Shown here: in pieces, positions 9,015 through 35,904 of the stretch
Position numbering within the stretch: the stretch's first letter is position 1
How the letters are laid out: every line of letters begins with the position of its first letter
Source of the DNA: Pontibacter rufus
GTDB taxonomy: Bacteria; Bacteroidota; Bacteroidia; Cytophagales; Hymenobacteraceae
Assembly: GCF_015694705.1 (NCBI RefSeq)
Contig: NZ_JADQDR010000014.1
Location: forward strand, 1 to 64,000
Direction: 5' to 3'
Length of the DNA stretch: 64,000 bases
Notes under the pieces: generated by a model
Databases searched by the model: none
Seen by the model: only the letters and a program-made list of their open reading frames with translations
Told to the model about the DNA's origin: nothing
Position numbers and translations under genes: made by a program

Positions 9015-10433
9015 TTATACTATGTCCGCTTGCTCTTCGTATTGCTTGCCAAAGCGGTCAGTAGCTATCACTTTCAGCTTCTTTACCTCCGGGCCAAAGT
9101 GAGCGACAAAGAGGTGGTCTGTTTTATTAGGCTCTGCAAAGGCCCGTTGCCTGGGTAGTTTGTCTCCTTTGTATAAAGCGACAGCCACTGGGTCAAAACC
9201 CTTTGTATTCTGCAGATTGCCCATGTATTTTTCATCTGCCCACCATTCTACCTTCCATTCCGGGCCCCAGTTCCATACATTAGCCACCATACGGTTCTGA
9301 TTCGTTAATTGCTCCACATGGATGCTCACCTGATAGTTTTTATCCAGGCCTGTGGGTTTGTAATACCATTTTAAGTCAGTGCCGTCTACTTCGTAAACGC
9401 CATAGCCTCTGGGCGTACCGTCACCGCAGATAGGGCCTGTCCACCAGGCGCCGCAAACGGCGCCGTGGTTATGCTCATAAATGCCGTCTTTAATTACATT
9501 CCGGTTGTAGTGCGTGTGCCCGGACATAATATGTGCTTTATATCCCTCTAACAAGGCATATAACGCTGCATTGTTTTTTACGCCGTTATGCACAGGAATA
9601 TGCAGGCACACAATAACTAAATTATTTTTGGGAACATACGCGAGGTCCTGCTTTAGCCAGTCTAATTGCTGCTGTGCAATATACCCGTCATACTTCCTGT
9701 CTTCGCCGAGGTAACGCACGTCATCCAAAACCACGTAATGCACTTTGCCGCGGTTAAATGAATAATGAGTAGGGCCATACAAGCTTTCAAAGGTATCATC
9801 CGAAACCTCATCCCCACCTTTGTTGTAATCCATGTCGTGGTTGCCCAGCGCCTGAAAGAAAGGGATGTTCATTTCTGCTACTGCTTGGTTGTAGCGGTCG
9901 AAAAGGGAATGATTGTCCCACACAATATCACCCACCGTAACACCATGAATCAGGGCTCCTGCGCCAAAGGATCGGACAAGCTGCTGTACATCCGGTACGG
10001 ACTGCGTAAGCATCTGCTCGACATCATTTTCATTCTTTACCTGCGGATCGGCCCAGATAATAAAGTTGTGCTTTGTGTCATCTGTCTGTAAGGCCGTCAG
10101 TTCAAAATTATACTGCTGCCTGCCGGTTTTGGTTATAGGATGATAATGCCTGGCTATTCCTTTTTCGTCAGGGAAAGCATACCCCGATGGCGTAGACAGG
10201 AAAACAAACTTCGCCTGCTTGTTGAGAGGAAGTTTATACTTTCCTCTCGCATTCGTCTGTACCACGCTGTACCCGTCTGATACGGTTACATTGGCAAGTG
10301 CTTTGCCCTGGGCAGTTACGCGTCCTTTAAGCTTTGTTGTAGCTACATTTGCCTGAGCAGTAGCATGGTTATCCGGCAGTAACAAGCCTCCCGTTAGCAG
10401 CAAGAGGCTTTGGAGGAAAGGCCTTCTCTTCAT
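9015..10433 (-). CDS. Secreted calcineurin-like metallophosphoesterase with N- and C-terminal accessory domains
   Basis: A 472-residue exported phosphoesterase. The N-terminus (MKRRPFLQSLLLLTGG) is signal-like with a twin-arginine-like RRxFL, followed by a small beta-sandwich domain (about 33-115, MetallophosN-like). The catalytic core (about 120-330) shows the dimetal motifs IIWADPQ, GDIVWDN, GNHD, CLHIPVH and GHTHYN. A C-terminal domain (about 335-470, MetallophosC-like) follows. It hydrolyses a phosphomonoester or diester in the periplasm or on the surface; the substrate is unknown. It lies on the same strand downstream of the SusC/SusD genes and the glycerol phosphate genes, which suggests (inference) that it frees phosphate from glycerol phosphate before GlpF takes up glycerol. 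A hairpin at 10581-10605 separates it from susD, so it may have its own promoter. Confidence 0.9.
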   Translation of the reverse strand: MKRRPFLQSLLLLTGGLLLPDNHATAQANVATTKLKGRVTAQGKALANVTVSDGYSVVQTNARGKYKLPLNKQAKFVFLSTPSGYAFPDEKGIARHYHPITKTGRQQYNFELTALQTDDTKHNFIIWADPQVKNENDVEQMLTQSVPDVQQLVRSFGAGALIHGVTVGDIVWDNHSLFDRYNQAVAEMNIPFFQALGNHDMDYNKGGDEVSDDTFESLYGPTHYSFNRGKVHYVVLDDVRYLGEDRKYDGYIAQQQLDWLKQDLAYVPKNNLVIVCLHIPVHNGVKNNAALYALLEGYKAHIMSGHTHYNRNVIKDGIYEHNHGAVCGAWWTGPICGDGTPRGYGVYEVDGTDLKWYYKPTGLDKNYQVSIHVEQLTNQNRMVANVWNWGPEWKVEWWADEKYMGNLQNTKGFDPVAVALYKGDKLPRQRAFAEPNKTDHLFVAHFGPEVKKLKVIATDRFGKQYEEQADIV

Positions 10434-10580
10434 CTGTATAATTTAAGTAGAGTTTAAGATGTATAAATCTGAAGCACGGGCTTTCAGAATGCTAATGAAT
10501 GGAAGAACAACGTTTAATTTATCTACCTATACATAGATTTATCAGGCAGCGGATATCCATACTTATCTGAATCCGATGTG

Positions 10581-10605
10581 CAGGCGAGGTTGCATTCCCC
10601 GCCTG
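10581..10605 (-). terminator. Hairpin downstream of the susD gene
   Basis: A 9-bp stem with one G-U pair (CAGGCGAGG at 10581-10589 facing CCCCGCCTG at 10597-10605). It lies 20 bases beyond the susD stop. No U-tract follows on the minus strand, so termination may be partial. Confidence 0.5.
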
Positions 10606-10624
10606 AGTTTAGCGCTCTGGAATA

Positions 10625-12199
10625 TTAATAATTAGGATTTTGCTCCAGGTTCGGGTTCAGATCTGTTTCAGTTAATGGAATAGGCCAGAGATAATCCCTT
10701 GCCGGATTAAAAGTTCTCACTTCAATCTGGCTACCGTTATAGGTGTATATGGGTGCATTTAATACATCCTCGGCAGTTTTCCAGCGGCGGATATCATTAT
10801 AATAATATCCTTCGCCCGCAAATTCAATCCTGCGTTCATGCCGGATAATTTCTCTCAATTCTTCCTGGGTATGCGGAGGGACTATTTCAGGCATATTAAC
10901 ACTTGGGCGCTGCCTTACTTTATTCAGAGCATCATACACAGCAGGAGATGGGCCAGAAAACTCATTCATCGCTTCGGCATACATCAATAAAACATCGGCG
11001 TAGCGCAGAATAATGTAATTCGTTTCAGACTGACCGGATTTAAGGTCAGACATGCCGGCAGGTGCAGGACCCTCGTCATAAATCGTATATTTTTGCATAC
11101 CGAAGCCCGTTACAGCGAAACGATCTTCGTCAACCACCTGCTCCATTAATGTATCGCCCGGATAAAAGATAGTTGCATATAAACGCGGATCACGGTTGGC
11201 ATAAGGCTCCTCCTCGTTATATCCCGAAAGAGGATCCGAAGCGGGCAGGCCATTTTTCATATCATAAGCCTGTGCCAGCCCAAGCAGCGGTGCATTGGTA
11301 TTATACTGCTTCCCAATCAGGTCAAAAGAAGTACCAAGCCCTGGGAAGATATACTGTACGTCGAAAATCACCTCTTTATTATTCTCATTCTGGGGCATAA
11401 ATAATTCGCGGTAATCATCATATAATCCATAGCCGGCTTCAGACAGGTCCATTACCGCTTTCGCAGCATCGGCCGCAGCTTGCCATTTCGTTATATCATT
11501 TGAGGGATTAAATAAAGGGCTGGCCTCGTATAACAAAACCCGCGCTTTTAATGCCAGGGCAGCGCCTTTAGTTGCCCGTCCTACATTACCGCCGCTATAG
11601 TTTAGTGGCAGCACCAATGCGGCACTGTCTAAATCCTGTATAATCTGTGCCACTACTTCTTCGCGCGGTGTGCGGGACAGGTCTGATTGCGTATCGGGGT
11701 TAGGCTCATCTAAAATAAGGGGCACACCACCGTAATAATTCTCCAGCATAAAATAATACAGGCCGCGTAGAAAATGAGCTTCGCCTTTCATCCTGGTTTT
11801 AATATCCTCACTCATCTCAACCCTGTCCACATTTGCCAGAAAGGTGTTGCAACGGCCTATACCTACATAGCTGTCGTGCCAGCGCTGGGCAATGATCCCG
11901 CCGTTGCTGGACTGCTGGCGGCCTTCGGCAATCAGATTAAAGCCCATCGCGTTGCTGTAGTTATAGGCATTTGGTGTTGCGGTTTCTTCCCAGAGGGGAG
12001 TTGCATCGCCGCCAAACAAGCCATCCGCAGTAAGCGGGTTGTAGCACCCTGACAGTGCGGCCTCCACGGCTGCTTCCGACTCCCAGAAATTCCCTTCATT
12101 ATACTTGTCAGTTGGCTGTGTTTCCAGCAGCTCTTCTTCACAGCCGCCCGCACCCAGGAGCACGACAAGCAGCCCGGTTATAATTGCTATATTTTTCAT
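10625..12199 (-). CDS. SusD/RagB-family nutrient-binding lipoprotein
   Basis: A 524-residue SusD-like surface lipoprotein. The start at 12199 (MKNIAIITGLL) gives a lipoprotein signal with the lipobox GAGGC (Cys20). The open frame continues 15 codons upstream into the susC stop, but those lack signal features. Typical SusD hallmarks follow: the TQPTDKYNEGNFW segment after the Cys, a TPR-rich helical core (RGLYYFMLENYYGGVPLI), the NYIILRYADVLLMYAEA motif (about 395-412), and the C-terminal RRIEFAGEGYYYNDIRRW and LWPIPLTE. It caps the SusC pore and binds the ligand at the cell surface. It begins 20 bases after the susC stop, so they form one operon. By position next to GDPD and glp genes the ligand may be a glycerophosphodiester (inference). 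Confidence 0.95.
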   Translation of the reverse strand: MKNIAIITGLLVVLLGAGGCEEELLETQPTDKYNEGNFWESEAAVEAALSGCYNPLTADGLFGGDATPLWEETATPNAYNYSNAMGFNLIAEGRQQSSNGGIIAQRWHDSYVGIGRCNTFLANVDRVEMSEDIKTRMKGEAHFLRGLYYFMLENYYGGVPLILDEPNPDTQSDLSRTPREEVVAQIIQDLDSAALVLPLNYSGGNVGRATKGAALALKARVLLYEASPLFNPSNDITKWQAAADAAKAVMDLSEAGYGLYDDYRELFMPQNENNKEVIFDVQYIFPGLGTSFDLIGKQYNTNAPLLGLAQAYDMKNGLPASDPLSGYNEEEPYANRDPRLYATIFYPGDTLMEQVVDEDRFAVTGFGMQKYTIYDEGPAPAGMSDLKSGQSETNYIILRYADVLLMYAEAMNEFSGPSPAVYDALNKVRQRPSVNMPEIVPPHTQEELREIIRHERRIEFAGEGYYYNDIRRWKTAEDVLNAPIYTYNGSQIEVRTFNPARDYLWPIPLTETDLNPNLEQNPNY

Positions 12200-12218
12200 A
12201 TTGCCTTTTCTTAAGAAG

Positions 12219-15200
12219 TTAAAACGTAACATTGAAACCTGCACTAACAGTTTTTAACATCGGATAATGGTATATTGTGCTTGCATTAACGATCGACTCC
12301 GGATCAAACCCTTCATACTTAGAGAAGGTAAGGATATTTTGTGCATTAAGGTATACCGATGCCCCGCTGATTTTTACCTGAGACAGCCATTTGGCAGGCA
12401 GTGCATAGCTTAACTGGATATTTTTCATCCTTAAATAAGAACCGTCCTGCAGCCAGAAATCAGAAGCTACATAATTATCGTCATCCACATCGCTTGGTGT
12501 AACTTGTGGAAGCGGGGCATCCGGCCGCTCCGGTGTCCAGGAATCGGTCACCCATTCCCAGGTAGCATTTGCTCCGTTGTTGAATGGGAAAGCCAGGTTT
12601 GCTGTAGGATAAACCTTCAATCCGGTTACTCCCTGAAATAAAGCATTTAAGGTAAATCCCTTGTATCCCAAATCGAGGCCAAACCCGAAAGTATACTTAG
12701 GGATTTGGGTTGAGGTAGATATAATTACCCGGTCATCACTCGTAATTTTATTATCTCCGTTTACATCACGGTATTTTAAATCGCCTGCTGTAGTAGTAGC
12801 ACTTTGAAAAGGGCTGCTTGCTACTTCATCAGCACTTTGAAAAATACCGATAGCATCATATATAAAGTATGAATTTACCGGATAACCCGCCTGCGTGATG
12901 GTAGAAAGATTGGTATCAAAGCCGTATAAAATCTCGCCGTTTAAATCCACTACTTCATTCTTGTTATAGGAAACATTTCCATTAACAGCGTAGCTGAAGT
13001 CGCCAATATCATTTTGGTAGCCTAAAACGAGCTCAAAACCCGTATTCCGCATGGCCCCGATGTTCCTGTTCGGCCCGCCAAGCCCGCCAACCTGATCGGG
13101 AATATTGACGGCACGAAGAATATCGGTTGTATACTTCTTATATACATCTGCGCTAAAGCTGATCCTGTTATTTAGCAGATAGGCATCCAAACCCAGATCA
13201 TAGGCAGTGGTGGTTTCCCAGGAAATATTCGGATCGCTGTAAGCCGTTGCCGCGGCCCCGGAAGCTAATACGCCGCCAAAACTATAATCCTGCCCCAGGT
13301 TAATTGAATTTTCATAGCTATACAACGGTACGGCCTGGTTTCCCAACTCGCCATAAGAGGCCCGCAGTTTTAGCAGGTCAAATACATTTGTCAGGTGGAA
13401 GAATGGTTCTTTATCAATACGCCACCCGGCAGACACTGCAGGGAAAAAGCCCCAGCGATTTCCTGTTGCAAAGCGGGATGACCCATCATATCGGAATGTT
13501 CCTTCCAACAGGTATTTTCCTTTAAAGTCGTAATTTATCCTGCCGAAATAAGATATCAGGACGTCTTCATTAGAACTGCCGCTGATGTAACCTTCATAAG
13601 GAAGAGAACCTGCACTTATGGCAGTAAGCGTTCCATCAAGATAGCCGTATGATCCGCTGGAGAAAGAAATATCATCATAATTATCATAGCTGCCTCCGAG
13701 CATTATACTTACATTATGCTTCTCTGCAAAAGTTTTATCCCAGTTCAGGGTATGGTAAAAATGAAGGTTCAGCTCATTATAATCAATTGCTCTGGAACGG
13801 GGGGCAGTAGATGGGCTGTTCCAGTTGGTTGCCTTCTCTGTTTTAGGATTGTAATGCTTTACCTGCGGAGTAAAATTCTGTAAAAGGCCATCATATTTAT
13901 CAGCTCCCAACTTTGCATGATAGGAAATGTCAAAAGGCAGCTGATAATCTGCAAACACAGTAGTCAGAAAGCGGTTTACCGTCTTTTTGCTGTAACCGGT
14001 TTCAAGGATCATCCGCGGGTTTTCCCAGTTGTTCCGGCCTGGTGTACGCAGCCAGGAATCACCATACCGTCCGTCTGCCAGGGTATCGGTAAGAATTGGC
14101 AATGTCCGGCTCAAATAACTCCAGATACTGTTATAGTAAGGTTCGTTGTAGTGGCGGTAATAGCCATCTAATGTTAAGCCTACTTTTAGCCGTTCGCTCA
14201 CATTCATGCTGGCATTAAGCCCCAGCGAATATTTCTTTTCCTGATCATTGGGGCCAATGAGAATGCCTTTCCGATCTAAATAACCCAATGAAACCCGGTA
14301 TTGGTATTTATCAGTACTCCCGGAAACACTAATATCATGTTTTTGTATCGTGCCATTGTCAAGGGCGATATCAAACCAGTTGCTTGCAGGATAAGTAAAC
14401 GGATCAGTTTTCATTCCCTGCTCATATTCGGCAATTTCCGCATCAGAATAGTCATGCACCTTGCCAATATTTTCCAGCGCCTGGTTCTTCAGGTGCATAT
14501 AGGCAATCGGATCCCAGATCGCATCAGGCATAACCGTAGGATTTTGAATACCTGTATAAAAGCTATAGTTTACTTTAGGTTTGCCGTTGCCCTTTTTTGT
14601 TGTTACCAGGATAACTCCATTAGCCGCACGTGATCCATAAATAGCGGCAGATGCATCTTTAAGTACAGATACACTTTCAATATCAGCAGGATTTAATTCA
14701 TCCATGGAGTATTCAATACCGTCGACCAGGACTAAAGGATTGTTATTATTTAAGGTTCCCATTCCACGTATGCGGATGGTTGAGCGGTCGACACCGGGTT
14801 GGCTGTTGCCCAGATTAACAAACAGGCCGGGTGTTCCATGCAACGCATTACTTACGTTGGTAAGTGGCTGCCCTTCCTTCTCAGACATCTCTACTGTACT
14901 TATTGCACCCGTAAGGTTTACCTTTTTCTGTGTTCCGTAACCGACAACAACCACTTCATTTAAGCTCTGCGTATTTTCCTGCATCACAATCTGAAGGGTT
15001 GTCTGGTTGTCAACAGGAACTTCCTGCGTGATAAACCCAAGATAGGAAACCACCAATACCGCATTATCCGCTATACCGGACAAGGTAAAATTACCATCCG
15101 CATCTGTTGTAACGGCCTGGTTCGTGTCTTTAACCCTAACAGAAGCGCCGGGAAGCGGTTCGCCGTTCTCGTCGACAACTTTTCCTTTAACAGCCACATT

Positions 15201-15347
15201 TTCACTCTGAAGAACTGCTGCGGGGTGAGGGGCGCCCAATGTATGGGTAACTAAACCGGGACCTGAAAAAATAAGGCATGAGCAGAGTAACAAGCCTTTC
15301 CCAAGGCTGTACCTGCATTTTTCGGGAAATAGTAAACACTTCTTCAT
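12219..15347 (-). CDS. SusC/RagA-family TonB-linked outer-membrane transporter
   Basis: A 1042-residue SusC-type receptor. After a long signal peptide (hydrophobic about residues 16-38) come a carboxypeptidase-regulatory-like domain (about 53-125, VKGKVVDENGEPLPGASV), the SusC signature SLNEVVVVGYGTQKK (about 131-146), the plug with MDELNPADIESVSVLKDASA, and a large barrel ending SAGFNVTF. It is the energised pore that works with the downstream SusD lipoprotein in the outer membrane. Length and motifs are those of a complete transporter. The 263-base gap upstream shows no clear promoter match. Genes for GDPD, GlpF, GlpK and GlpD lie upstream on the same strand. This is unlike polysaccharide loci, where glycoside hydrolases would sit here. 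Confidence 0.95.
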   Translation of the reverse strand: MKKCLLFPEKCRYSLGKGLLLCSCLIFSGPGLVTHTLGAPHPAAVLQSENVAVKGKVVDENGEPLPGASVRVKDTNQAVTTDADGNFTLSGIADNAVLVVSYLGFITQEVPVDNQTTLQIVMQENTQSLNEVVVVGYGTQKKVNLTGAISTVEMSEKEGQPLTNVSNALHGTPGLFVNLGNSQPGVDRSTIRIRGMGTLNNNNPLVLVDGIEYSMDELNPADIESVSVLKDASAAIYGSRAANGVILVTTKKGNGKPKVNYSFYTGIQNPTVMPDAIWDPIAYMHLKNQALENIGKVHDYSDAEIAEYEQGMKTDPFTYPASNWFDIALDNGTIQKHDISVSGSTDKYQYRVSLGYLDRKGILIGPNDQEKKYSLGLNASMNVSERLKVGLTLDGYYRHYNEPYYNSIWSYLSRTLPILTDTLADGRYGDSWLRTPGRNNWENPRMILETGYSKKTVNRFLTTVFADYQLPFDISYHAKLGADKYDGLLQNFTPQVKHYNPKTEKATNWNSPSTAPRSRAIDYNELNLHFYHTLNWDKTFAEKHNVSIMLGGSYDNYDDISFSSGSYGYLDGTLTAISAGSLPYEGYISGSSNEDVLISYFGRINYDFKGKYLLEGTFRYDGSSRFATGNRWGFFPAVSAGWRIDKEPFFHLTNVFDLLKLRASYGELGNQAVPLYSYENSINLGQDYSFGGVLASGAAATAYSDPNISWETTTAYDLGLDAYLLNNRISFSADVYKKYTTDILRAVNIPDQVGGLGGPNRNIGAMRNTGFELVLGYQNDIGDFSYAVNGNVSYNKNEVVDLNGEILYGFDTNLSTITQAGYPVNSYFIYDAIGIFQSADEVASSPFQSATTTAGDLKYRDVNGDNKITSDDRVIISTSTQIPKYTFGFGLDLGYKGFTLNALFQGVTGLKVYPTANLAFPFNNGANATWEWVTDSWTPERPDAPLPQVTPSDVDDDNYVASDFWLQDGSYLRMKNIQLSYALPAKWLSQVKISGASVYLNAQNILTFSKYEGFDPESIVNASTIYHYPMLKTVSAGFNVTF

Positions 15348-15610
15348 GTATGGTAAGGCTTAAGTGGTTATGCAAGGTTGATGTAAGTTTCGTTTTTCCT
15401 TATTCCAGGTAAGGGCAGTGAAGAAGATAGAGAGTACACAGGCCGCCACAAGCATGATAAAGCCGTTGCTGTTCAAAAGAGTGCATACCTTCAGGGTTAT
15501 CTTAAGTAAGCGGACAAGAAAAACTACATACTCTCAATCCATCATCAAGTATAAATTGCTGGTTATCAAAGCATAGCAAGTATAAAAGTCTGTGGTTTAT
15601 GTTCTGCATG

Positions 15611-16537
15611 CTATAACCGGCTAAACAGATTCGGGTAGTCGGTGATAATGCCGTCCACTCCCATTGCTTTGAGCTCCTTCATTTCTTCCAGCGTATTCAC
15701 TGTCCAGGGGACGAACTTTATACCTTGCTCATGACACTTTTCTATCAAACTACTTGTGGCTAACTTGTAAGCAGGGCTATAAATCTGGGGAGCAAACCCG
15801 ATTTTCCGGATGTTGTCTTCAAAGGAAGCTTTGTTATCAGATGTTAGAAAACCGATTACGACCTGCGGGTATTGCCTGTGTACTTCCTGTATCTGCCGGA
15901 CATCGAATGACTGGATGTAGAACCTGTTATCCAGCTGCTTTTTGTTTACAACATCCATCACCAGCCTGATCAGCTCCTGCGGTTCAGGCTGATACACGCC
16001 GTCGTACTCAGGGTTGGCTTTTATTTCTATGTTATAAATAACATCAGGCAAACCCTTCGCGGCAGTATATTGCTCTACCGAATCAATCAGTTCGCCCAGC
16101 AAAGGAATATAAGCCGGCATCTTCTTTTGCTCCGGAAAGCTGCTGTAGTATTTAGAGCCTACATCAAACCTGCGGATGTCGGCATAGTCCATCTGGTGGA
16201 GAATGTAGCGCCTGGCGTCCTCTTCCGGGATTTCCCCGCCGTCAGGCAGCAGCGCGAAGTTGCGGTTTATGTAAGGATCGTGGGCAACCATCACCTGCCC
16301 ATCTTTGCTGATTTGTACATCCATCTCCAGCACATTGGCGCCTACGTCCACGGCCTTTTTCATGGCAGGTATCGTGTTTTCAGGCATCAGCCCCCTGGTT
16401 CCGCGGTGACCTTCTTTATAGAAATCCGGAAAGTGCTCCTTCATCGCCGTAGCCGGCGACTGTACCCTGCAACCTGAAAACAAGGCTGCTACCAAACAGA
16501 TCAGTAAAAAGGATTTCGCTGAATAAAACTTCTTCAT
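15611..16537 (-). CDS. Glycerophosphodiester phosphodiesterase, lipoprotein
   Basis: A 308-residue GDPD-family enzyme with a lipoprotein signal (lipobox FSGC, Cys23), so it should act in the periplasm or on an outer-membrane face. It hydrolyses glycerophosphodiesters such as glycerophosphocholine to glycerol 3-phosphate and an alcohol. The TIM-barrel motifs are complete: HRGTRGLMPENT (H44, E53), LEMDVQISKDGQVMVAHD (about 70-88), YNIEIK (about 165-170), and the C-terminal PWTVNT and GVDGIITDYP. It lies between the SusC/SusD pair and glpF on the same strand. A -7 element at 16566-16573 suggests its own promoter. It could also act on polymers with glycerophosphate backbones (not decidable here). 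Confidence 0.94.
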   Translation of the reverse strand: MKKFYSAKSFLLICLVAALFSGCRVQSPATAMKEHFPDFYKEGHRGTRGLMPENTIPAMKKAVDVGANVLEMDVQISKDGQVMVAHDPYINRNFALLPDGGEIPEEDARRYILHQMDYADIRRFDVGSKYYSSFPEQKKMPAYIPLLGELIDSVEQYTAAKGLPDVIYNIEIKANPEYDGVYQPEPQELIRLVMDVVNKKQLDNRFYIQSFDVRQIQEVHRQYPQVVIGFLTSDNKASFEDNIRKIGFAPQIYSPAYKLATSSLIEKCHEQGIKFVPWTVNTLEEMKELKAMGVDGIITDYPNLFSRL

Positions 16538-16565
16538 AGTACAATTAGTTTATTTAGTCTCGCTG

Positions 16566-16573
16566 CAAAAGTA
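16566..16573 (-). promoter_or_regulatory. Predicted -7 element for the GDPD gene
   Basis: TACTTTTG on the minus strand fits TAnnTTTG and would start transcription about 20 bases before the GDPD start codon. No matching TTG was found at the usual distance. Confidence 0.35.
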
Positions 16574-16683
16574 GACCAGCCAGTTTAAGCCATCTTTACC
16601 GCATTGTTATGTTACAGTTAGGTATAAAGCCAAAGCGTTAAATGGAAGCGATTCCGCTGGATAAAGCTTTTCCATAGTATAAA

Positions 16684-17415
16684 TCAGGCTTTGAGCAGTA
16701 AGTACAGAAGCGCCGCCAGGCCAGCACCCAGAACAGGGCCTATTACAGGAACCCAGGCATACTTCCAATCGCTGTGGCACTTGTTCTTCATGGGCAAAAG
16801 CGTATGAATAATCCTGGGACCCAGGTCACGGGCCGGGTTAATAGCATACCCCGTGGTGCCGCCCAGCGACAGGCCAATGGCCCAAACCAGGAAAGCAACA
16901 GGGATAGCGCCCAGCGACCCCATGCCGATAGGAGTTTTTTCATCTCCCATCTCAGGCCCAGTAAAATAAAAGATCACGAATATCAGTACAAAAGTGCCCA
17001 GTATTTCGCTGAACAAGTTCGAGAAAGGGTGCCGGATGGCAGGCCCGGTGCTGAACGTCGCCAACTGTAACAGCGGATTGTCGGTAATATCAAGATGGGG
17101 CTTGTAGAGCAGCCAGACCAGAAAGGCACCCAGCATGGCTCCCAACAGTTGCGCTATAATAAACAGCCCGACCTGATCCCAAGCGAACTTACCAGCGATG
17201 GCCAAACCCAGCGTTACAGCCGGATTTAAGTGGGCGCCACTATAAGGAGCAGCAATAACTACCCCGGCAAAAACTGACAGCGCCCAGCCGGTGGTAATCA
17301 CGATCCAACCGCTATCATGTCCTTTCGTGCCTTTCAGAACAACATTTGCCACTACGCCATTGCCTAGCAGTATCAAAAACATAGTACCTATCAGTTCGGC
17401 CGTAAATGCTGTCAT
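16684..17415 (-). CDS. glpF: Glycerol facilitator (MIP/aquaglyceroporin family)
   Basis: A 243-residue inner-membrane channel with six predicted membrane helices. The two half-helix signatures are intact: NPA at 64-66 (GAHLNPAVTLG) and NPARD at 193-197 (YAINPARDLGPR). The Asp after the second NPAR is the mark of the glycerol-conducting GlpF branch as opposed to water channels. It lets glycerol diffuse into the cytosol, where GlpK traps it. It lies 137 bases downstream of glpK on the same strand. A near-perfect palindrome TTATACA-A-TGTATAA lies at 17453-17467 in that gap. Confidence 0.96.
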   Translation of the reverse strand: MTAFTAELIGTMFLILLGNGVVANVVLKGTKGHDSGWIVITTGWALSVFAGVVIAAPYSGAHLNPAVTLGLAIAGKFAWDQVGLFIIAQLLGAMLGAFLVWLLYKPHLDITDNPLLQLATFSTGPAIRHPFSNLFSEILGTFVLIFVIFYFTGPEMGDEKTPIGMGSLGAIPVAFLVWAIGLSLGGTTGYAINPARDLGPRIIHTLLPMKNKCHSDWKYAWVPVIGPVLGAGLAALLYLLLKA

Positions 17416-17452
17416 GTTTAATCGGTTATACTATAAAATAATTCGGGTCGCG

Positions 17453-17467
17453 TTATACAATGTATAA
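17453..17467. promoter_or_regulatory. Palindrome between glpK and glpF
   Basis: TTATACA and TGTATAA face each other around one base. It could be an operator, but it also resembles the window-wide AGTATAA motif, so its meaning is unclear. Confidence 0.25.
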
Positions 17468-17552
17468 TAGGGAATCAGATGTAAAAGAGGCATACAACGA
17501 GTCTCTGTTCCTGTTGAAGCTACAACTCTCCCTCATCGAGAGCCATAATTCC

Positions 17553-19037
17553 TTATACCCAGGCTTTAGTAGCTCTCACAGCCCGGTGCCACCCTTCAAT
17601 CAGGCCATCCTTCTGTAATGAAGTATCCGGTTCAAAACTGCGACCGGTTTGCCATTGCTGCTGGATTTCCTCTATGCTGTCCCAGTATCCTGTAGCCAGG
17701 CCTGCCAGGTAGGCCGATCCAATAGCCGTTACCTCCGTTACCCTGGATTTTACTACACGAGTTCCCAGAATATCTGCCTGAAACTGCATCAGCAGGTCGT
17801 TCTCGGTGGCGCCGCCATCAACCCGCAGTTCTTTAATCCTGATTTTAGCATCGGCTTCCATTGCCTGTAACACTTCCAGCGTTTGGTAGGCAATACTTTC
17901 CAGGGCTGCCCGGGCAATATGGGCAGAAGTAGTGCCTCGGGTCATTCCCACCATCGTGCCGCGGGCGTGTTGGTTCCAGTGCGGAGCGCCCAGGCCGGCA
18001 AATGCCGGAACGAGGTAAACGCCGTCACTGCTTTCCACTTTCTGTGCCAGTTGCTCGACATCGGCGGAGGAGGAGATTACCCCCAACCCATCCCGCAGCC
18101 ACTGCACCACGGCGCCAGCTATAAAAATGCTTCCTTCCAGGGCATAATGCACCTGATCTTTAATCTTCCAAGCAACGGTAGTTACCAGTTTATGACTGGA
18201 GAGGATCGGCTTTTCCCCAATGTTCATGAGCATGAAGCACCCGGTTCCGTAAGTGTTTTTTACCATACCGGGTTTGGTGCACATTTGCCCGAACAAAGCT
18301 GCCTGCTGGTCACCGGCAATGCCGGCAATGGGAATCCGCTTTGCAAAAAGGGAACTGGAGGTTTCCCCCACTATTTCACTTGAGGATTTTACCTCGGGCA
18401 GCATATTTGCCGGAATTTCAAACAGTTCCAGGAGTTCCTCATCCCACGACAAAGTATTTATATTAAAGAGCAGTGTGCGGGAGGCATTGGTAACGTCCGT
18501 TACATGCACTTTGCCGCCAGTCATGTTCCAGATGAGCCAGGAGTCGATGGTGCCGAAAACCAGTTTTCCGGCCTCTGCCTTCTCTCTGGCGCCAGCCACA
18601 TTTTTAAGGATCCATCTCACCTTGGTAGCTGAAAAGTAGGCGTCTATCACCAAGCCGGTTTTTTCTCTAATCATGCCTTCCAGCCCTTGCTCTTTCAGGC
18701 TGTCGCAGTAATCTGCGGTGCGGCGATCCTGCCAAACGATAGCGTTATAGATTACCTCGCCCGTCTGCCGGTCCCATACCACAGTGGTTTCGCGCTGGTT
18801 GGTTATACCGATGGCCTCTATGTCTTGTGCGTGTAGCCCCGCCTTAAGTATGGCTTCCGCAGCCACTCCTACCTGCGTAGACCATATTTCCTTGGCGTTA
18901 TGTTCTACCCAGCCAGGCTTTGGATAGATTTGCGTGAACTCTTTCTGAGAAACTGAGATCAAGGCGCCTTTCTTATCGAAAATAATAGCGCGGGAACTGG
19001 TAGTCCCCTGATCGAAAGCAAGAATATATTTTGACAT
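17553..19037 (-). CDS. glpK: Glycerol kinase
   Basis: A 494-residue FGGY-family kinase (E. coli GlpK is 502) that phosphorylates glycerol to sn-glycerol 3-phosphate with ATP in the cytosol. Diagnostic segments: [17 protein letters not shown] at residues 4-20, [14 protein letters not shown] near 101, [14 protein letters not shown] near 169, [11 protein letters not shown] near 241, and the C-terminal [20 protein letters not shown] near 404. It is complete and without frameshift. It sits between glpD and glpF on the same strand with gaps of 203 and 137 bases, wide enough for separate promoters. The gap upstream contains no clear operator. Confidence 0.98.
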
Positions 19038-19240
19038 AGATATTAATTTATATGCTTTGAGATCGTTTTGTTGCTGTACTCAATACAAGGCATAGCTAGT
19101 GTAGATTGTCCTTGGTGCCATTCATCAACAATAAAAAACATAACTATCTACCTGTTATAATTACTATTCAGCTTAAAGTGCCCACTGTTGGCCAAACTCT
19201 TTGTACCATTTAGAGCAATGTTTCTTCTAAATCAAAGACC

Positions 19241-20872
19241 CTAATTATGTATTGTTGTTACCGGCACATAGGGTGCAAGCAAATAGCGATTCGCTAAGGT
19301 GGTAAAAGCGTTTACCTGCTTTTTTTGCCATACTTCATCAAACCCGAGTGCCGCCGCCATAACAACCGCAACTTTAGGCGCCATCTCAATAGCAGCTTTG
19401 GCATCCAGAAAAAGAATTCGTAATCTTCTTGCCAGCACATCCTCCACCGTTCTGGCCATCTCGTTTTGCACCGCCCATACCACCTCGGCTTCAATGTCAG
19501 GAAATTTCCCGTGCAACCGTTCCCCTAACGCAGGATTACTGTTTAACAGGCTCCTTATTGCTGGCGCATCGCTTCCATAAATACTTAGGTGATCAGACGT
19601 ACTACCATGCGCTGCATAGCCATGTATTTTTATTCCTGCCGTAGGGCAGGGCACGGCGGGCAGCTTCCCTACTTTGATAGCTTCATCCACGGTGTCTTCT
19701 GCCATTTTGCGGTAAGTTGTCCATTTGCCTCCTGTTATGGTGATCAGCCCGGATGAGGTTACCATCAGCTTATGGCTTCGGGAAATCTCCTTCGTGCTGC
19801 CTGTATCCTTTCCTGATGCCGCCAATGGGCGAAGTCCGGCAAAAACACTCAGCACATCGAGGCGCGTGGGTTTTCGGCTCAGATACCGCCCGGCAGTTTC
19901 CAGAATAAAAGCAATTTCCTCTTCCAGGGCGGTAGGTTCCAGGCTGTGGCTGTTCAGAGGCGTATCTGTTGTTCCGACCAGGACATGCTGGTGCCATGGA
20001 ACGGCAAACAACACCCGCCCGTCCGGTGTTTTGGGTATCATCAGGGCAGCACCTCCTCCCAGAAAAGAACTGTCCAGCACAACATGCACTCCCTGGCTGG
20101 GCTGTATCAACGGTTCCTGCGCAGGCGAATCCATCTGCAACACCTCGTCTACAAATACGCCTGTGGCATTAACCACCACTTTAGCCTGTAGCTGGTATTC
20201 CCGGCCGCTCTCCAAATCCTGGGCCTTTACCCCGGCTACTTTTCCTTTCTCATCTTTTAACAGATCCTGAACCTTAGTATAATTAAGCACAACACCGCCT
20301 TGTTCGGCGCATGTCTGGGCTATGTTCACGGCTAATCTGGCGTCATCGAACTGACCATCGTAGTATTCTATTCCGCCCTGCAGCCCTTTTTGCTCAATAG
20401 TAGGCAGCAACTTCACCACTTCGCTTTTGGAAAGAAAAGTTGTTTTCTGAAATCTGTGACGGCCAGCCATCCAATCGTATACCTTCAGTCCAACTCCGTA
20501 AAGCAGCTTGTCCCAGCGGGTATAACTGGGAATGACGAAAGGCTGCACTTTTACCAGGTGTGGCGCATTTTGCAGCAAAAGGCCTCTCTCATGCAAAGCC
20601 TCATACACAAGGCTGACATTTCCCTGAGCCAGGTACCGTACGCCTCCATGCACCAATTTGGTGCTCCGGCTGGAAGTACCTTTGGCAAAGTCCGACTGCT
20701 CCAGCAACAGGGTTTTAAAACCCCTTGAAGCCGCATCCAAAGCAACCCCCAGTCCGGTAGCGCCGCCGCCAATTACTATCATATCCCAGATGGATTGTGA
20801 TTCTTCTACTTCCTGCATAAACTGTTGGCGGTCAAACCAGCTTCTATTTGCTTCTACTTTCTTCGGGCGCAT
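19241..20872 (-). CDS. glpD: Aerobic glycerol-3-phosphate dehydrogenase
   Basis: A 543-residue FAD-dependent G3P dehydrogenase that oxidises glycerol 3-phosphate to dihydroxyacetone phosphate at the inner membrane and feeds electrons to quinone. The FAD site GGGATG is at residues 35-40, followed by SSRSTKLVHGGVRYL (about 68-82), the VVNATGVF segment near 215, and the C-terminal DAO domain (about 400-525). The length matches the family. The start at 20872 gives an N-terminal extension of about 30 residues before the Rossmann motif, which is usual. It is transcribed divergently from the DeoR/GlpR regulator over a 197-base AT-rich gap holding a palindrome at 21003-21025. Confidence 0.97.
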   Translation of the reverse strand: MRPKKVEANRSWFDRQQFMQEVEESQSIWDMIVIGGGATGLGVALDAASRGFKTLLLEQSDFAKGTSSRSTKLVHGGVRYLAQGNVSLVYEALHERGLLLQNAPHLVKVQPFVIPSYTRWDKLLYGVGLKVYDWMAGRHRFQKTTFLSKSEVVKLLPTIEQKGLQGGIEYYDGQFDDARLAVNIAQTCAEQGGVVLNYTKVQDLLKDEKGKVAGVKAQDLESGREYQLQAKVVVNATGVFVDEVLQMDSPAQEPLIQPSQGVHVVLDSSFLGGGAALMIPKTPDGRVLFAVPWHQHVLVGTTDTPLNSHSLEPTALEEEIAFILETAGRYLSRKPTRLDVLSVFAGLRPLAASGKDTGSTKEISRSHKLMVTSSGLITITGGKWTTYRKMAEDTVDEAIKVGKLPAVPCPTAGIKIHGYAAHGSTSDHLSIYGSDAPAIRSLLNSNPALGERLHGKFPDIEAEVVWAVQNEMARTVEDVLARRLRILFLDAKAAIEMAPKVAVVMAAALGFDEVWQKKQVNAFTTLANRYLLAPYVPVTTIHN

Positions 20873-20998
20873 TACACATGTTTACGTTTTGTTGTTATAA
20901 ACTAAAATAATAAAATTGATAATAACAAAAAGAAACATATAAATTTTTTCTTTTATAGCATGAAAAGTAAATCTGATTTCCTATTGACAATCATCATT

Positions 20999-21025
20999 TA
21001 GCTTTGCACTTTTACTAAGTGCAAA
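20999..21025 (+). promoter_or_regulatory. Predicted regulator promoter with overlapping GlpR-like operator
   Basis: TAGCTTTG (20999-21006) is a perfect TAnnTTTG -7 element for the rightward regulator gene. An inverted repeat TTTGCACTT (21003-21011) / AAGTGCAAA (21017-21025) overlaps its 3' end and the likely start site. A repressor bound here would block its own promoter. A partner TTG at the standard distance was not found. Confidence 0.5.
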
Positions 21026-21069
21026 TACGAAAGTCTCTTTTTTACAAGAAATATTACTGAATTACATTT

Positions 21070-21834
21070 ATGATTAACACAATTGAGAGGCATCAATACA
21101 TTATAAACAAACTCCAGCAGGAGGGGCAGGTGAATGTGCTATATTTATGCAACGAACTGGATGTTTCGTCTGTAACTATACGAAAGGATTTGAAGCTACT
21201 GGAAGATAAAGGTTTGCTTTTTCGGACGCATGGTGGCGCAACCTTGCATAATCCCTATACTATAGATCGTTCCATTAATGAGAAAGAAAAAATTCATTCT
21301 ACAGAAAAGATGCACATTGGCGCTGCAGCGGCCAAGATGTTACAGCCCAATGATTCTATTCTGATCGCCTCAGGCACTACCGTGCTGGCGCTGGCTAAAA
21401 GTATACAGGCCCAGGAAAACTTAACAGTTATTACCTCTGCTCTTCCTGTTGCTATGGAACTGATCCGGTATCCGGAAATCGAAGTGCTTCAATTAGGGGG
21501 CGTATTAAGGAAAAGTTCGTCATCCGTTACCGGGCCTCATGCCGAAAGAAGTTTAGCTGACTTTTCTTGTAGTAAGCTGTTTTTAGGGGTAGATGGAATA
21601 GATATTGAGTTCGGTTTAACGACCACGAATGTAATGGAGGCGCACCTTAACCGCCAGATGATTATGATCTCCCAAAAAACCATTGTGTTGGCGGATTCTA
21701 CCAAATTCGGAAAAAGAGGATTCGGCAGAATCTGCGGGTTTGAAGACATTGACCAGATAATCACCGATAAAGGTGTGTCGGATTACAACGTAAAAGCATT
21801 GGAAGGCATAGGCGTAAAAGTAACCATTGTATAA
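21070..21834 (+). CDS. glpR: DeoR/GlpR-family transcriptional regulator
   Basis: A 254-residue DeoR-family repressor. The N-terminal winged helix-turn-helix (about residues 5-57) has the family motif LDVSSVTIRKDLKLLEDKGLL followed by RTHGGA. The C-terminal sugar-phosphate sensor domain (about 75-230) shows ASGTTVLALAKSI and LGGVLRKSSSSVTGP. By analogy with GlpR, the likely ligand is glycerol 3-phosphate, and the target genes are the divergent glpD and perhaps glpK, glpF, GDPD and SusC/SusD. The assignment to glycerol rests on position. The nearby 9-bp palindrome is a candidate operator. The next gene downstream is on the opposite strand. Confidence 0.85.
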   Translation: MINTIERHQYIINKLQQEGQVNVLYLCNELDVSSVTIRKDLKLLEDKGLLFRTHGGATLHNPYTIDRSINEKEKIHSTEKMHIGAAAAKMLQPNDSILIASGTTVLALAKSIQAQENLTVITSALPVAMELIRYPEIEVLQLGGVLRKSSSSVTGPHAERSLADFSCSKLFLGVDGIDIEFGLTTTNVMEAHLNRQMIMISQKTIVLADSTKFGKRGFGRICGFEDIDQIITDKGVSDYNVKALEGIGVKVTIV

Positions 21835-22017: not shown

Positions 22018-23115
22018 TTAATCATCCGCAGAAATGTCGTACTTCTTTAGTATAGCCGTGATCTCTGGTTTCAGTTGATGCAGCATTCTGTCAAAGCCAA
22101 GATCATTAGGATGCGTTCCATCCACTGTTCCTTCATGATCCTGACCAAGCAGGTTTTTCGCTGAGATAAAGTATAGATCTTTAATGCCTTTCTGTTGCAA
22201 TAACCGAAACTGATCCTGAATAGCAGCATTCTGATCCGCAACTCTTTTTCCTACTTTCTGATCCCAGTAACTGTGTTCCCGGATAATGCTTTGTATCACG
22301 ATAATCGGGGCTTTGGGATGTTTTTCCCTTATGGTAGAAACTAAATAGCCGGTGCGTTCTTTTATTTGTTGCGGAGATGAATTCGGAACACAGTCCAGTA
22401 TGTACGCATCAGCAGGGATGGATGCCACCAGATCCGCTGCGGCTTTTTCCATTTTGGCGCTGCCGCTTAATCCAAGGTTCAGGAAGTTCAGCCCGGTTGC
22501 TCTTGACAGCCTGGCAGGATAAGCCATTCCGGGCCTGCTTGCGGATGCGCCCTGAAGAATGCTGGAACCGTAGATGAGAATACGCTTGCGGAAAGGATCT
22601 GGCAGTTTTTTTATCGAAGCGCCCGGATCAATGCCGATTTCCAGGTTAGAAGTTTCATCATATAACGGGAGATACAGCAGGCATTCTTTTTCGCTGTTGT
22701 CCATGTTTTTTACCAGGCTTGCTTCCGTGCAATCTTCACGGGGACGACCGACGCCTGCAAACTGCCATTTCCCATTTTTCTTGATATACAGATCAAGCCC
22801 CTCAGAAGCAATACCTGTCATATTGGACGATGCTTTGCGGCTACTGGTACACCATTTGGCGGATATTGCCGTACTGTTTGTTTTAAAAGTAACTGCCAGC
22901 CCGGCAGAATTGGTAAGCAGTCTCTTCACCGCCGGAGGCAGTGCCGGGAAATCGGCTGTATCTACCCTGTGATAAAGATTTTCTGTAGAAATTATTTTCC
23001 CAACCAGCGTTAAATCTGAAGCCGGAATATAAACCGGCTTCTGTGCCTGAATAGATGTCATCGCCATACCACATATGCCGGCGGTAATCACTAGCAGCCT
23101 AAAGAGTGCCTTCAT
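22018..23115 (-). CDS. Secreted SGNH/GDSL-type hydrolase
   Basis: A 365-residue exported esterase. A signal peptide (cleavage near SIQAQ, residue 24) precedes a beta-sandwich N-terminal domain (about 25-165) and an SGNH catalytic domain (about 170-360). Catalytic blocks: block I YGSSILQG (nucleophile Ser about residue 184), block II NLGLSG, block III at DCVPN (Asn) and block V DGTHPND (Asp/His about 334-337). It probably removes an ester group from a carbohydrate or lipid outside the cytoplasm; the substrate is unknown. It is separated from its neighbours by 183 and 850 bases, so it is likely a single transcription unit. Confidence 0.88.
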   Translation of the reverse strand: MKALFRLLVITAGICGMAMTSIQAQKPVYIPASDLTLVGKIISTENLYHRVDTADFPALPPAVKRLLTNSAGLAVTFKTNSTAISAKWCTSSRKASSNMTGIASEGLDLYIKKNGKWQFAGVGRPREDCTEASLVKNMDNSEKECLLYLPLYDETSNLEIGIDPGASIKKLPDPFRKRILIYGSSILQGASASRPGMAYPARLSRATGLNFLNLGLSGSAKMEKAAADLVASIPADAYILDCVPNSSPQQIKERTGYLVSTIREKHPKAPIIVIQSIIREHSYWDQKVGKRVADQNAAIQDQFRLLQQKGIKDLYFISAKNLLGQDHEGTVDGTHPNDLGFDRMLHQLKPEITAILKKYDISADD

Positions 23116-23880: not shown

Positions 23881-23939
23881 TATAAAGGATCAAGTATACC
23901 AAGTATATCTCTTATACTTGGTATACTTGATCCTTTATA
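23881..23939. repeat. 27-bp perfect inverted repeat downstream of the HEAT/DUF1080 gene
   Basis: Arms 23881-23907 and 23913-23939 are perfectly complementary around a 5-base loop. They contain AAGTATACC in tandem with AAGTATA. The repeat lies 28 bases past the stop of the leftward gene and may act as a transcript end or 3' stabiliser. No U-run follows. Confidence 0.85.
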
Positions 23940-27387: not shown

Positions 27388-27456
27388 AATATAATGCATA
27401 AGAGGCGAATAATCGTTTTTGATTTTTTCAGTTTAGATAGCTTTGGTAGTTGCAGG

Positions 27457-32611: not shown

Positions 32612-32642
32612 GATAGTATGGTTTTCAATGGTTCAGGCATCG

Positions 32643-35489: not shown

Positions 35490-35904
35490 AAAGATATGTA
35501 AAGTAAGCATTGACTCAACTAAATATAGATAGATTAGTCTATATAGATTAACCATTGCAATTTACTCTCAATATCTTTTTAAGTTGCACCGGATTTGAAA
35601 AATAGCATGAATTAATATAAATAATACTAAATATATTCAAAAATTTATATTATTATCTATTTCTTATCCCTGATATTTATAGACAGCAGGTAAATCCAGT
35701 CCAAAAAAATAGATATAAATAAACACACTTCAGCCCACTTAACAGAAATTTGCTCTTCTAAAGCGCTGTTGTTTAAGACTTGAAGACTGGCTCATATAAA
35801 AAGCCGAAAAAAGCCTGTAAAAAGGCAACTTTAAAACAGCACAAAAAATAAAGCCCTGCTACTGGTAGAGTAGCAGGGCTTACAACAGCTAAAAGCTGGT
35901 CTTT
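35490..35904. other. AT-rich gap between the adhesin gene and lipA
   Basis: Very AT-rich near 35510-35680, likely holding the adhesin promoter; no clear consensus match seen. The lipA terminator occupies 35851-35881. No gene. Confidence 0.5.
35851..35881 (-). terminator. Intrinsic terminator of lipA
   Basis: Perfect 13-bp stem (35851-35863 with 35869-35881) around loop GGTAG. A U-rich run follows on the minus strand. Confidence 0.95.

What the first reader, a model, noticed from the sequence alone, without database searches (positions are those of the whole stretch)
9015..21834. A putative SusC/SusD-based uptake and breakdown locus for glycerophosphodiesters
Seen: secreted calcineurin-like phosphoesterase, SusD, SusC, lipoprotein GDPD, GlpF, GlpK and GlpD on one strand, with a divergent GlpR-type repressor. 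No glycoside hydrolase or polysaccharide lyase is present, which is odd for a SusCD pair. Known: GDPD yields glycerol 3-phosphate; GlpF admits glycerol but not glycerol phosphate; GlpK and GlpD lead to dihydroxyacetone phosphate. Inference: SusCD imports glycerophosphodiesters (or a glycerophosphate polymer), GDPD cuts them in the periplasm, the metallophosphatase removes phosphate, and glycerol enters through GlpF. This would be a phosphodiester analogue of a polysaccharide utilisation locus that supplies both carbon and phosphate.
Basis: partly seen in the sequence, partly recalled or inferred. Interest (0 to 1): 0.8.

Follow-up and report, generated by a model that had tools for sequence, protein, structure and literature searches.

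The report
Outer-membrane locus for eating glycerophosphate esters
A Bacteroidota bacterium carries an outer-membrane import pair, of the kind normally used for sugars, wired to genes that cut and burn glycerol-phosphate esters; similar wiring recurs in related species, and here the import pair looks to have been swapped for a foreign one while a transporter next to it was lost.

Summary
Every gene reported is there. The main idea holds and can be extended. In 9 of 9 genomes with a close CPPE (62-69%), SusC, SusD, GDPD and a GDSL esterase flank it and GlpT lies within about 12 kb. In 80 named loci, SusC is near CPPE in 75, GDPD in 70, a glp gene in 37. Those SusCD belong to another family (SusD-like_2). 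The window's SusCD type is also found beside glp genes in another order: 7 of 11 loci, against 0 of 21 distant SusCD loci. So two unlike SusCD types were recruited to one pathway. The window looks like a swap in place: a glpT remnant lies between GDPD and SusC, SusC keeps the resident signal peptide, its body and SusD are nearest to the other order. No GlpT match exists in the genome, so glycerol 3-phosphate is probably dephosphorylated in the periplasm and glycerol enters by GlpF. CPPE resembles phosphodiesterases, not a proven phosphatase. SusCD loci for organic phosphate (Pus) are already described; this is a carbon-coupled variant. Substrate unsettled.

The parts
21070..21834 (+). DeoR-family regulator (GlpR-like), divergent from GlpD
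   Evidence: PF08220 + PF00455; AgaR model exactly at cut-off 260; 80-82% identical to the regulator at the same locus in 7 of 9 relatives
21003..21025 (.). Perfect 9-bp inverted repeat TTTGCACTT-N5-AAGTGCAAA between regulator and GlpD; candidate operator
   Evidence: single match in the window with up to 3 mismatches, 0.04 expected; exact core GCACTT-N5-AAGTGC not found in L048-L172, so unproven
19241..20872 (-). GlpD, glycerol-3-phosphate dehydrogenase
   Evidence: PF01266, PF16901; best NCBIfam NF008899, 305 bits, below its cut-off of 360
17553..19037 (-). GlpK, glycerol kinase
   Evidence: TIGR01311 745 bits, over cut-off
16684..17415 (-). GlpF, glycerol facilitator (MIP family)
   Evidence: PF00230; TIGR00861 over cut-off
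15611..16537 (-). GDPD lipoprotein, glycerophosphodiester phosphodiesterase; no acidic stretch after the lipid Cys (CRVQSPA), so probably facing the periplasm (export rule recalled)
   Evidence: PF03009 E 6.5e-44; 3ch0 E 8e-66; lipobox
15387..15464 (-). Remnant of the 3' end of glpT (GlpT residues 436-461), where close relatives have glpT
   Evidence: tblastn E 2.3e-8, 73% of 26 residues; DNA 73-87% over 50-84 bp to 25 other fetched loci, best E 8e-18
12219..15347 (-). SusC, TonB-dependent transporter; mosaic: signal peptide (about 15228-15347) of the resident SusD-like_2-type SusC, body (12219 to about 14954) of a type found in another order
   Evidence: TIGR04056 948 bits; N-terminus test; 77% DNA identity to G809 over 10625-14954
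10625..12199 (-). SusD, lipoprotein (mature end CEEELLE, acidic, suited to surface export; rule recalled); ORF opens at GTG 12244, likely start ATG 12199
   Evidence: PF07980, PF14322; 80% identical to G809; tree support 100/99 with G809
9015..10433 (-). CPPE: secreted calcineurin-like phosphoesterase, twin-arginine-like signal, MetallophosN and MetallophosC flanks
   Evidence: PF16371, PF16370; model pLDDT 85.9; nearest folds Rv0805 and GpdQ; D129, Q131, D169, N198, H278, H306, H308 invariant in 38 sequences
6549..8837 (-). TonB-dependent receptor just downstream; membership uncertain
   Evidence: PF00593, PF07715; partial match to PqqU, below cut-off
22018..23115 (-). Secreted GDSL esterase with GxDLY domain beyond the regulator; a different GDSL subfamily from the one in relatives' loci; membership uncertain
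   Evidence: PF14606, PF14607; two of the relatives' GDSL scanned, both PF13472

Best explanation
This is a SusCD locus for glycerol-phosphate phosphodiesters feeding the glp pathway. SusD on the cell surface binds, and SusC with TonB imports, an ester that contains glycerol phosphate. GDPD (a lipoprotein, probably of the periplasm) and CPPE (exported, probably by Tat) cut the diester bonds and release glycerol 3-phosphate. Because this genome has no GlpT match, a periplasmic phosphatase (most likely PafA, possibly CPPE itself) then frees phosphate, and glycerol enters through GlpF to be used by GlpK and GlpD. The DeoR-type repressor senses the supply. The locus descends from a version that took in intact glycerol 3-phosphate by GlpT; its SusCD pair was replaced in place by one of a type now found in another order, and most of glpT was lost. 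Shown: gene content, conserved neighbourhoods, lack of a GlpT match, remnant, mosaic SusC. Inferred: substrate, enzyme directions, regulation, phosphatase step, direction of transfer.
For: CPPE at 62-69% identity occurs in 9 other genomes of the 390 searched in the order. In the 20-kb stretches around those nine: SusC 9, SusD-like_2 9, GDPD 9, GDSL 9, GlpR 7, GlpT 7, GlpF 4 of 9; GlpT over cut-off lies within about 12 kb in 9 of 9 (places). In the best 80 of 383 confirmed CPPE relatives in named genomes: SusC 75, SusD-like_2 76, GDPD 70, GDSL 64, GlpT 27, any glp gene 37, SusC+GDPD+glp 31 of 80, within 8 ORFs. Window-type SusD at 55% identity or more: glp genes in 7 of 11 loci, GDPD in 5 of 11, against 0 and 0 of 21 loci of more distant SusC relatives; G968 (L167) has the window's own order GlpR|GlpD-GlpK-GlpF-GDPD-SusC-SusD. 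GlpT over cut-off: 9 of 9 SusD-like_2-locus genomes, 0 of 9 genomes with window-type SusCD beside glp or phospholipase genes, the window's own included. CPPE fold near GpdQ and Rv0805. PafA over cut-off in 18 of 19 genomes searched, two copies here. G021, the nearest SusC in the genus, has a MetallophosN/C phosphoesterase after SusD.
Against: No enzyme, binding or expression data. 43 of the 80 CPPE loci show no glp gene within 8 ORFs (8 of the 80 are cut by contig ends). In 11 more distant CPPE loci (42-53%, chosen from 51): SusC 7, SusD-like_2 8, GDPD 2, glp genes 0 of 11. Window-type SusCD has no glp neighbour in 4 of 11 loci, nor in G1002 (49%), and its 44-51% relatives sit with another phosphoesterase (G021) or a sulfatase (G060, G051). 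CPPE has Gln where class III diesterases (as I recall) have His. Gaps of 137-263 bp between most of the window's genes leave a single transcript unproven, and the candidate operator is not repeated before susC.
Confidence: 0.7

Rival explanations
1. Poly(glycerol phosphate) reading: the ligand is a teichoic-acid-like polymer, often glycosylated, from Gram-positive walls. CPPE would cut inside the chain and GDPD from its end, as PhoD and GlpQ do in Bacillus subtilis; side-chain sugars and esters are removed by accessory enzymes in some species.
For: The pairing of a GDPD with a calcineurin-like diesterase mirrors GlpQ (exo) and PhoD (endo) of B. subtilis, and sugars on the chain block GlpQ (PMC7086022, passages; that PhoD is calcineurin-like is recalled). 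GH36 and NAGLU each occur in 5 of 80 CPPE loci and one Rufibacter locus also has a GH20; these would fit Gal and GlcNAc side chains (the Gal case recalled). The GDSL esterase in 64 of 80 loci could remove D-alanine. A polymer explains the need for SusCD.
Against: The glycosidases are few (5 of 80 each) and none is in the window. Phosphocholine-specific phospholipase C beside window-type SusCD points to phospholipids.
Confidence: 0.27
2. Phospholipid reading: the locus takes in glycerophospholipids or their deacylated esters (such as glycerophosphocholine); phospholipase C, GDSL esterase and GDPD strip the head group and acyl chains.
For: Phosphocholine-specific phospholipase C over cut-off (TIGR03396) lies beside window-type SusCD in G809, G819 and G968, and a gene with a like start in G978 (not scanned); GDSL in 64 of 80; PLD-like protein in 16 of 80; a fatty-acid hydroxylase family gene upstream of SusC in L091 (one locus scanned).
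Against: The window shows neither phospholipase C nor PLD in the locus. Whole phospholipids are not known SusCD ligands (recalled), and deacylated ones are small.
Confidence: 0.38
3. Phosphate scavenging (Pus-type) locus: the main yield is phosphate under phosphate limitation, and the glp genes are accidental neighbours.
For: PusCD loci with diesterases are induced by low phosphate in Flavobacterium johnsoniae (PMC8115612, sections 14 and 16). Some CPPE loci carry ECF sigma/FecR genes (14 and 13 of 80), and none of 11 more distant CPPE loci shows a glp gene.
Against: A DeoR-type regulator stands at the locus; GlpT, GlpF, GlpK or GlpD recur with two unlike SusCD types. I did not search for PhoB/PhoR or a Pho box.
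Confidence: 0.15
4. Two separate units that merely abut: a glp operon with GDPD, and a SusCD-CPPE unit for some phosphorylated glycan.
For: 263-bp gap between GDPD and SusC; a second glpF-GDPD pair without SusCD elsewhere in this genome (C1, L148); G021 has SusCD and a phosphoesterase with no glp gene in the fetched stretch; 0 of 11 distant CPPE loci with glp genes.
Against: The same joining in 7 of 11 window-type loci against 0 of 21 controls, and of the other SusCD type with GDPD and a glp gene in 31 of 80.
Confidence: 0.12

Closest known systems
Pus (phosphate utilisation system) loci of Flavobacterium johnsoniae, PusCD1 and PusCD2 (PMC8115612)
   Same: SusCD pair with periplasmic phosphodiesterases or phosphatase and no CAZymes; proposed uptake of organic phosphorus
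   Different: Pus loci are induced by low phosphate, with an ECF sigma (PUSI) or FecR (PUSII) gene, and list no glp gene or separate GDPD in the table read (PhoA1 of PUSII carries a GDPD_2-type domain); here the locus is joined to glycerol catabolism and a DeoR-type regulator, in close relatives also to GlpT
Polysaccharide utilisation loci (starch Sus type)
   Same: SusC, SusD, hydrolases and a local regulator, uptake of products across the inner membrane (recalled)
   Different: Phosphodiesterases take the place of glycoside hydrolases; the product is glycerol (3-phosphate)
glp regulon with GlpQ and GlpT of Escherichia coli
   Same: GDPD, GlpT, GlpF, GlpK, GlpD and a GlpR-type repressor (recalled)
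   Different: No TonB/SusCD importer in E. coli (recalled); the window's version has only a remnant of glpT
GlpQ plus PhoD teichoicases of Bacillus subtilis (PMC7086022)
   Same: GDPD-family exo-enzyme with an endo-diesterase; PhoD as calcineurin-like is recalled
   Different: Self-turnover in a Gram-positive; no importer; CPPE carries MetallophosN/C domains; PhoD was not compared with it here
Bacteroides thetaiotaomicron BT4724-25 (SusCD) and BT4727 (GDPD), listed in PMC10434189
   Same: SusCD close to a GDPD gene
   Different: Only a table passage was seen; no function assigned there, glp genes not checked

Membership tests
SusCD import pair | SusC of TIGR04056 with plug, barrel and CarbopepD domain, next to a SusD-family lipoprotein | tested here: met
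   TIGR04056 948 bits over cut-off; SusD PF07980 and PF14322
Polysaccharide utilisation locus | SusCD with glycoside hydrolases or polysaccharide lyases | tested here: not met
   none among the window genes of the locus; GH36 and NAGLU in 5 of 80 related loci each
Pus (phosphate utilisation) locus | SusCD next to phosphodiesterases or phosphatases | tested here: met
   GDPD and CPPE flank SusCD
Pus (phosphate utilisation) locus | induced only by phosphate depletion | not testable with these tools
   needs expression data
Pus (phosphate utilisation) locus | ECF sigma or FecR gene at the locus | tested here: not met
   DeoR-type regulator at the window's locus, no ECF/FecR among the genes scanned there; ECF/FecR in 14 and 13 of 80 related loci
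glp regulon | GlpF, GlpK, GlpD and a GlpR-type repressor together | tested here: met
   the regulator's class is DeoR, its ligand unknown; GlpD below its NCBIfam cut-off
glp regulon | glycerol-3-phosphate transporter GlpT | tested here: not met
   no match in this genome; remnant only at 15387-15464
GDPD family | PF03009 over cut-off and close solved relative | tested here: met
   151 bits; 3ch0 E 8e-66
GpdQ/Rv0805 class III phosphodiesterases | fold of the catalytic domain | tested here: met
   Foldseek E 3.9e-11 (Rv0805) and 1.6e-7 (GpdQ), TM by target 0.56-0.72
GpdQ/Rv0805 class III phosphodiesterases | D-x-H first metal motif | tested here: not met
   D129-P130-Q131, Gln for His; D129 and Q131 invariant in 38; motif expectation recalled

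The most novel reading that the evidence does not exclude
The locus family is a utilisation system for poly(glycerol phosphate), glycosylated or not: SusCD pulls teichoic-acid-like polymers through the outer membrane, an endo-diesterase (CPPE) and an exo-diesterase (GDPD) take them apart, and two interchangeable SusCD types serve two ways of bringing in the product (intact by GlpT, or dephosphorylated by GlpF). The window records a switch from the first to the second.
Probability: 0.25. Interest if true: 0.85.

Novelty: new variant of a known kind. Interest (0 to 1): 0.62.

Why it matters
It would extend SusCD uptake from sugars and low-phosphate scavenging to a carbon-plus-phosphate diet of glycerol-phosphate esters, in a locus type found in Pontibacter, Rufibacter, Pedobacter and others. 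It gives a context to a phosphoesterase family without an assigned function in the libraries used (MetallophosN/C). The window is also a natural experiment: one genome in which the importer appears to have been exchanged in place and the inner-membrane transporter lost, which lets one test whether the SusCD type goes with the product route.

Tried and rejected
Rejected: that the window's SusCD is the usual partner of CPPE (window-type SusD within 3 genes of CPPE in 0 of 80). Rejected: that another held genus member carries the same SusC (only G021 at 47% among the other 49). Tried: Bacteroidota-type promoter pattern (no match at the strict pattern between 5000 and 24000; pattern recalled); sigma-70-type promoters and terminators (29 found against 21.5 in shuffles, 12 against 14.3: uninformative); operator search in L048-L172 (exact core not found); CPPE tree (window placement unresolved); sequence search of CPPE in the PDB (none at E 0.01). 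Literature searches for SusCD with GDPD/glp genes or organic phosphate; of what they listed, only PMC8115612 described a comparable system. Open-licence papers only, so absence from print is not proven. Papers: PMC8115612, passages and sections 14 and 16; PMC8812569, PMC7086022, PMC10434189, passages; PMC10132767, term search with no hit; all others, listings only.

Neighbour labels come from my own ORF caller and blastp to reference proteins. The 11 distant CPPE loci were picked by me from the list. The 55% threshold was set after I had seen the neighbourhoods: one search gave 13 places in 12 genomes; of the two below it, G1002 (49%) shows no glp gene and G1033 (38%) stands among the controls. 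G021, G060 and G051 are in neither group. The 21 controls are SusC loci (about 33-39% to the window's SusC) that I had already fetched, not a random sample. One search did not label phospholipase C, so G809 counts there as having no glp gene and no phosphatase.
Full report
Observation. All eight genes are present as described. The order on the minus strand is GlpD, GlpK, GlpF, GDPD, SusC, SusD, CPPE, with a DeoR-type regulator divergent from GlpD. The genome is 5.0 Mb in 21 contigs.

Is the association real? I searched 390 genomes of the order with CPPE: 61, the window's own among them, had a match at E 1e-60 or better; nine others match at 62-69% identity over nearly the whole length. In 20-kb stretches around those nine, labelled by blastp: SusC 9, SusD-like_2 9, GDPD 9, GDSL esterase 9, GlpR 7, GlpT 7, GlpF 4, GlpK 3 of 9. 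Where GlpT is seen it stands next to SusC. It was identified in L050 by TIGR00712 at 742 bits against a cut-off of 633, and in all nine genomes a GlpT over cut-off lies within about 12 kb of CPPE (places). The fetched stretches end before GlpF in several, so 4 of 9 is a lower bound. In 11 more distant CPPE loci (42-53%) the picture is thinner: SusC 7, SusD-like_2 8, GDPD 2, glp genes 0 of 11. So SusCD-CPPE is the older and wider module, and the joining to glp genes belongs to the closer group.

A scan of named genomes with ten CPPE sequences gave 383 confirmed relatives, of which the best 80 were kept: Pontibacter, Rufibacter, Pedobacter, Daejeonella, Flavihumibacter, Niastella, Mucilaginibacter and a few others. 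Within 8 ORFs of CPPE: SusC 75, SusD-like_2 76, GDPD 70, DUF5689 protein 67, GDSL 64, GlpR 28, GlpT 27, any glp gene 37, SusC with GDPD and a glp gene 31, PLD 16, GH36 5, NAGLU 5, ECF sigma 14, FecR 13, all of 80. Eight of the 80 are cut by contig ends. In Daejeonella and in the Pedobacter loci that have it, GlpT follows GDPD instead of preceding SusC.

The window's SusCD is of another type. The relatives' SusD is SusD-like_2 (PF12771, scanned in L048), the window's is SusD_RagB/SusD-like_3, and the two SusC proteins are about 23% identical over their length. A window-type SusD lies within 3 genes of CPPE in 0 of 80. In this genome the best match to the relatives' SusD is 30% identical. In the genus, the only other SusC at E 1e-240 is G021 at 47% among 49 other genomes.

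Where the window's SusCD type is found. In 395 genomes of the phylum, the best SusD outside this genome is G430 at 61%, in another order of the class. Searching 244 genomes of that family gave 12 with a match, the best G809 at 80%. In the 11 loci with SusD at 55% or more, glp genes are present in 7 and GDPD in 5; in 21 loci of more distant SusC relatives, 0 and 0 (how the groups were chosen is told under Tried and rejected). G968 has the window's order from GlpR to SusD. G430 and G975 have PafA next to SusD (G430's over cut-off; G975's split in two and below it). G809, G819 and G968 have a phosphocholine-specific phospholipase C over cut-off. G865 (two loci) and G943 show none of these, nor does G1002 at 49%. 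A tree places the window's SusD with G809 at 100/99, inside that family. So two unlike SusCD types have been joined to glycerol-phosphate genes.

Evidence of a swap in place. The gap between GDPD and SusC holds 26 codons like the 3' end of glpT (15387-15464): 73% identical in protein, E 2.3e-8, and 73-87% in DNA over 50-84 bp to 25 other fetched loci, best E 8e-18 (several of these are the same genomes fetched twice). That is where the close relatives have glpT. The first 40 residues of the window's SusC score 42-91 against 13 SusC proteins, all from SusD-like_2 loci in the Pontibacter and Rufibacter genera; the other 125 of 138 score 38 or less. Residues 135-300 score highest with G809, and DNA 10625-14954 is 77% identical to G809. 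Residues 45-134 match neither source best. The gene therefore looks like a mosaic: resident signal peptide, foreign body.

GlpT and route. The genome has no GlpT match at E 0.001. Over the curated cut-off, GlpT is in 9 of 9 genomes with the SusD-like_2 locus, and in 0 of 9 with window-type SusCD beside glp or phospholipase genes (G000, G809, G819, G978, G975, G430, G968, G1020, G828); the remaining 13 genomes of the 31 searched have none over cut-off either. Ten genomes below the cut-off gave weak matches of 65 bits or less, which I take for other MFS transporters. Without GlpT, periplasmic glycerol 3-phosphate needs a phosphatase before GlpF can help. PafA is over cut-off in 18 of 19 genomes searched, with two copies here. 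In F. johnsoniae PafA is essential for growth on several phosphomonoesters as carbon source; phosphoglycerol served as a phosphorus but not as a carbon source there (PMC8812569, passages). That the glp genes here would supply the missing carbon step is inference.

What CPPE is. AlphaFold2 model with 38 sequences, mean pLDDT 85.9. Nearest solved folds are Rv0805 (E 3.9e-11) and GpdQ glycerophosphodiesterase (E 1.6e-7). The metal-site residues are invariant in 38, with Gln131 where I recall His. This favours a diesterase; activity on monoesters is not excluded.

Substrate. A TonB-driven pair suggests something larger than simple glycerophosphodiesters. Two readings remain open: phospholipid-derived esters (phospholipase C, GDSL and PLD neighbours) and poly(glycerol phosphate) (diesterase pair like GlpQ and PhoD, PMC7086022, passages; occasional GH36, NAGLU, GH20 neighbours). 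I cannot decide between them.

Regulation. One perfect 9-bp inverted repeat lies between regulator and GlpD (21003-21025; 0.04 expected at up to 3 mismatches). It is not repeated before susC, and its exact core was not found in L048-L172. Whether susCD shares the glp transcript is unknown.

Known or new. Pus loci (PMC8115612) already establish SusCD with phosphodiesterases. What I did not find in seven searches of open-licence papers is the joining of SusCD to GDPD, GlpT and the glp genes, its conservation, or the exchange of SusCD types. I rate it a new variant of a known kind.

Noticed in passing
G000:C1:122281-123060 (L148: GDPD 9761-10690, GlpF 10694-11425): A second glpF-GDPD pair in the same genome (GDPD 70%, GlpF 84% identical to the window's), with no SusCD beside it in the 20 kb fetched.
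   Followed up: partly
window 23883-23936 (approximate): Long inverted repeat (AAAGGATCAAGTATACCAAGTATA and its complement) between the GDSL esterase gene and the 1143-aa gene; read by eye.
   Followed up: no
window 23968-28734: A 1143-aa protein with HEAT repeats and a 3-keto-disaccharide hydrolase domain next to a Gfo/Idh/MocA oxidoreductase: possibly a glycoside 3-oxidation pair.
   Followed up: no
window 31673-35555: Ice-binding-like protein with PKD-like repeats and a type IX secretion signal domain next to a PorP/SprF gene.
   Followed up: no
L036 7093-10209 and 16230-19400 (G000:C5, beyond the window): Two SusC genes with identical first 40 residues, each with a SusD, close together.
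   Followed up: no
L164 (G975): SusC, GDPD and PafA are each split or cut in this genome: decay or sequencing error.
   Followed up: no
L072 44-4887 and L031 2301-8087: Other phosphate-type neighbourhoods: in L072 a SusD cut by the locus edge, a calcineurin-like phosphoesterase, a GDPD_2-alkaline phosphatase protein and a type I phosphodiesterase; in L031 a SusC-like protein with a type I phosphodiesterase.
   Followed up: partly
L070, L078, L081, L084, L087, L103, L112: GH36 and/or NAGLU near CPPE, five of these seven loci in Rufibacter; L087 also has a GH20. Suggests a glycosylated ligand in these species.
   Followed up: partly
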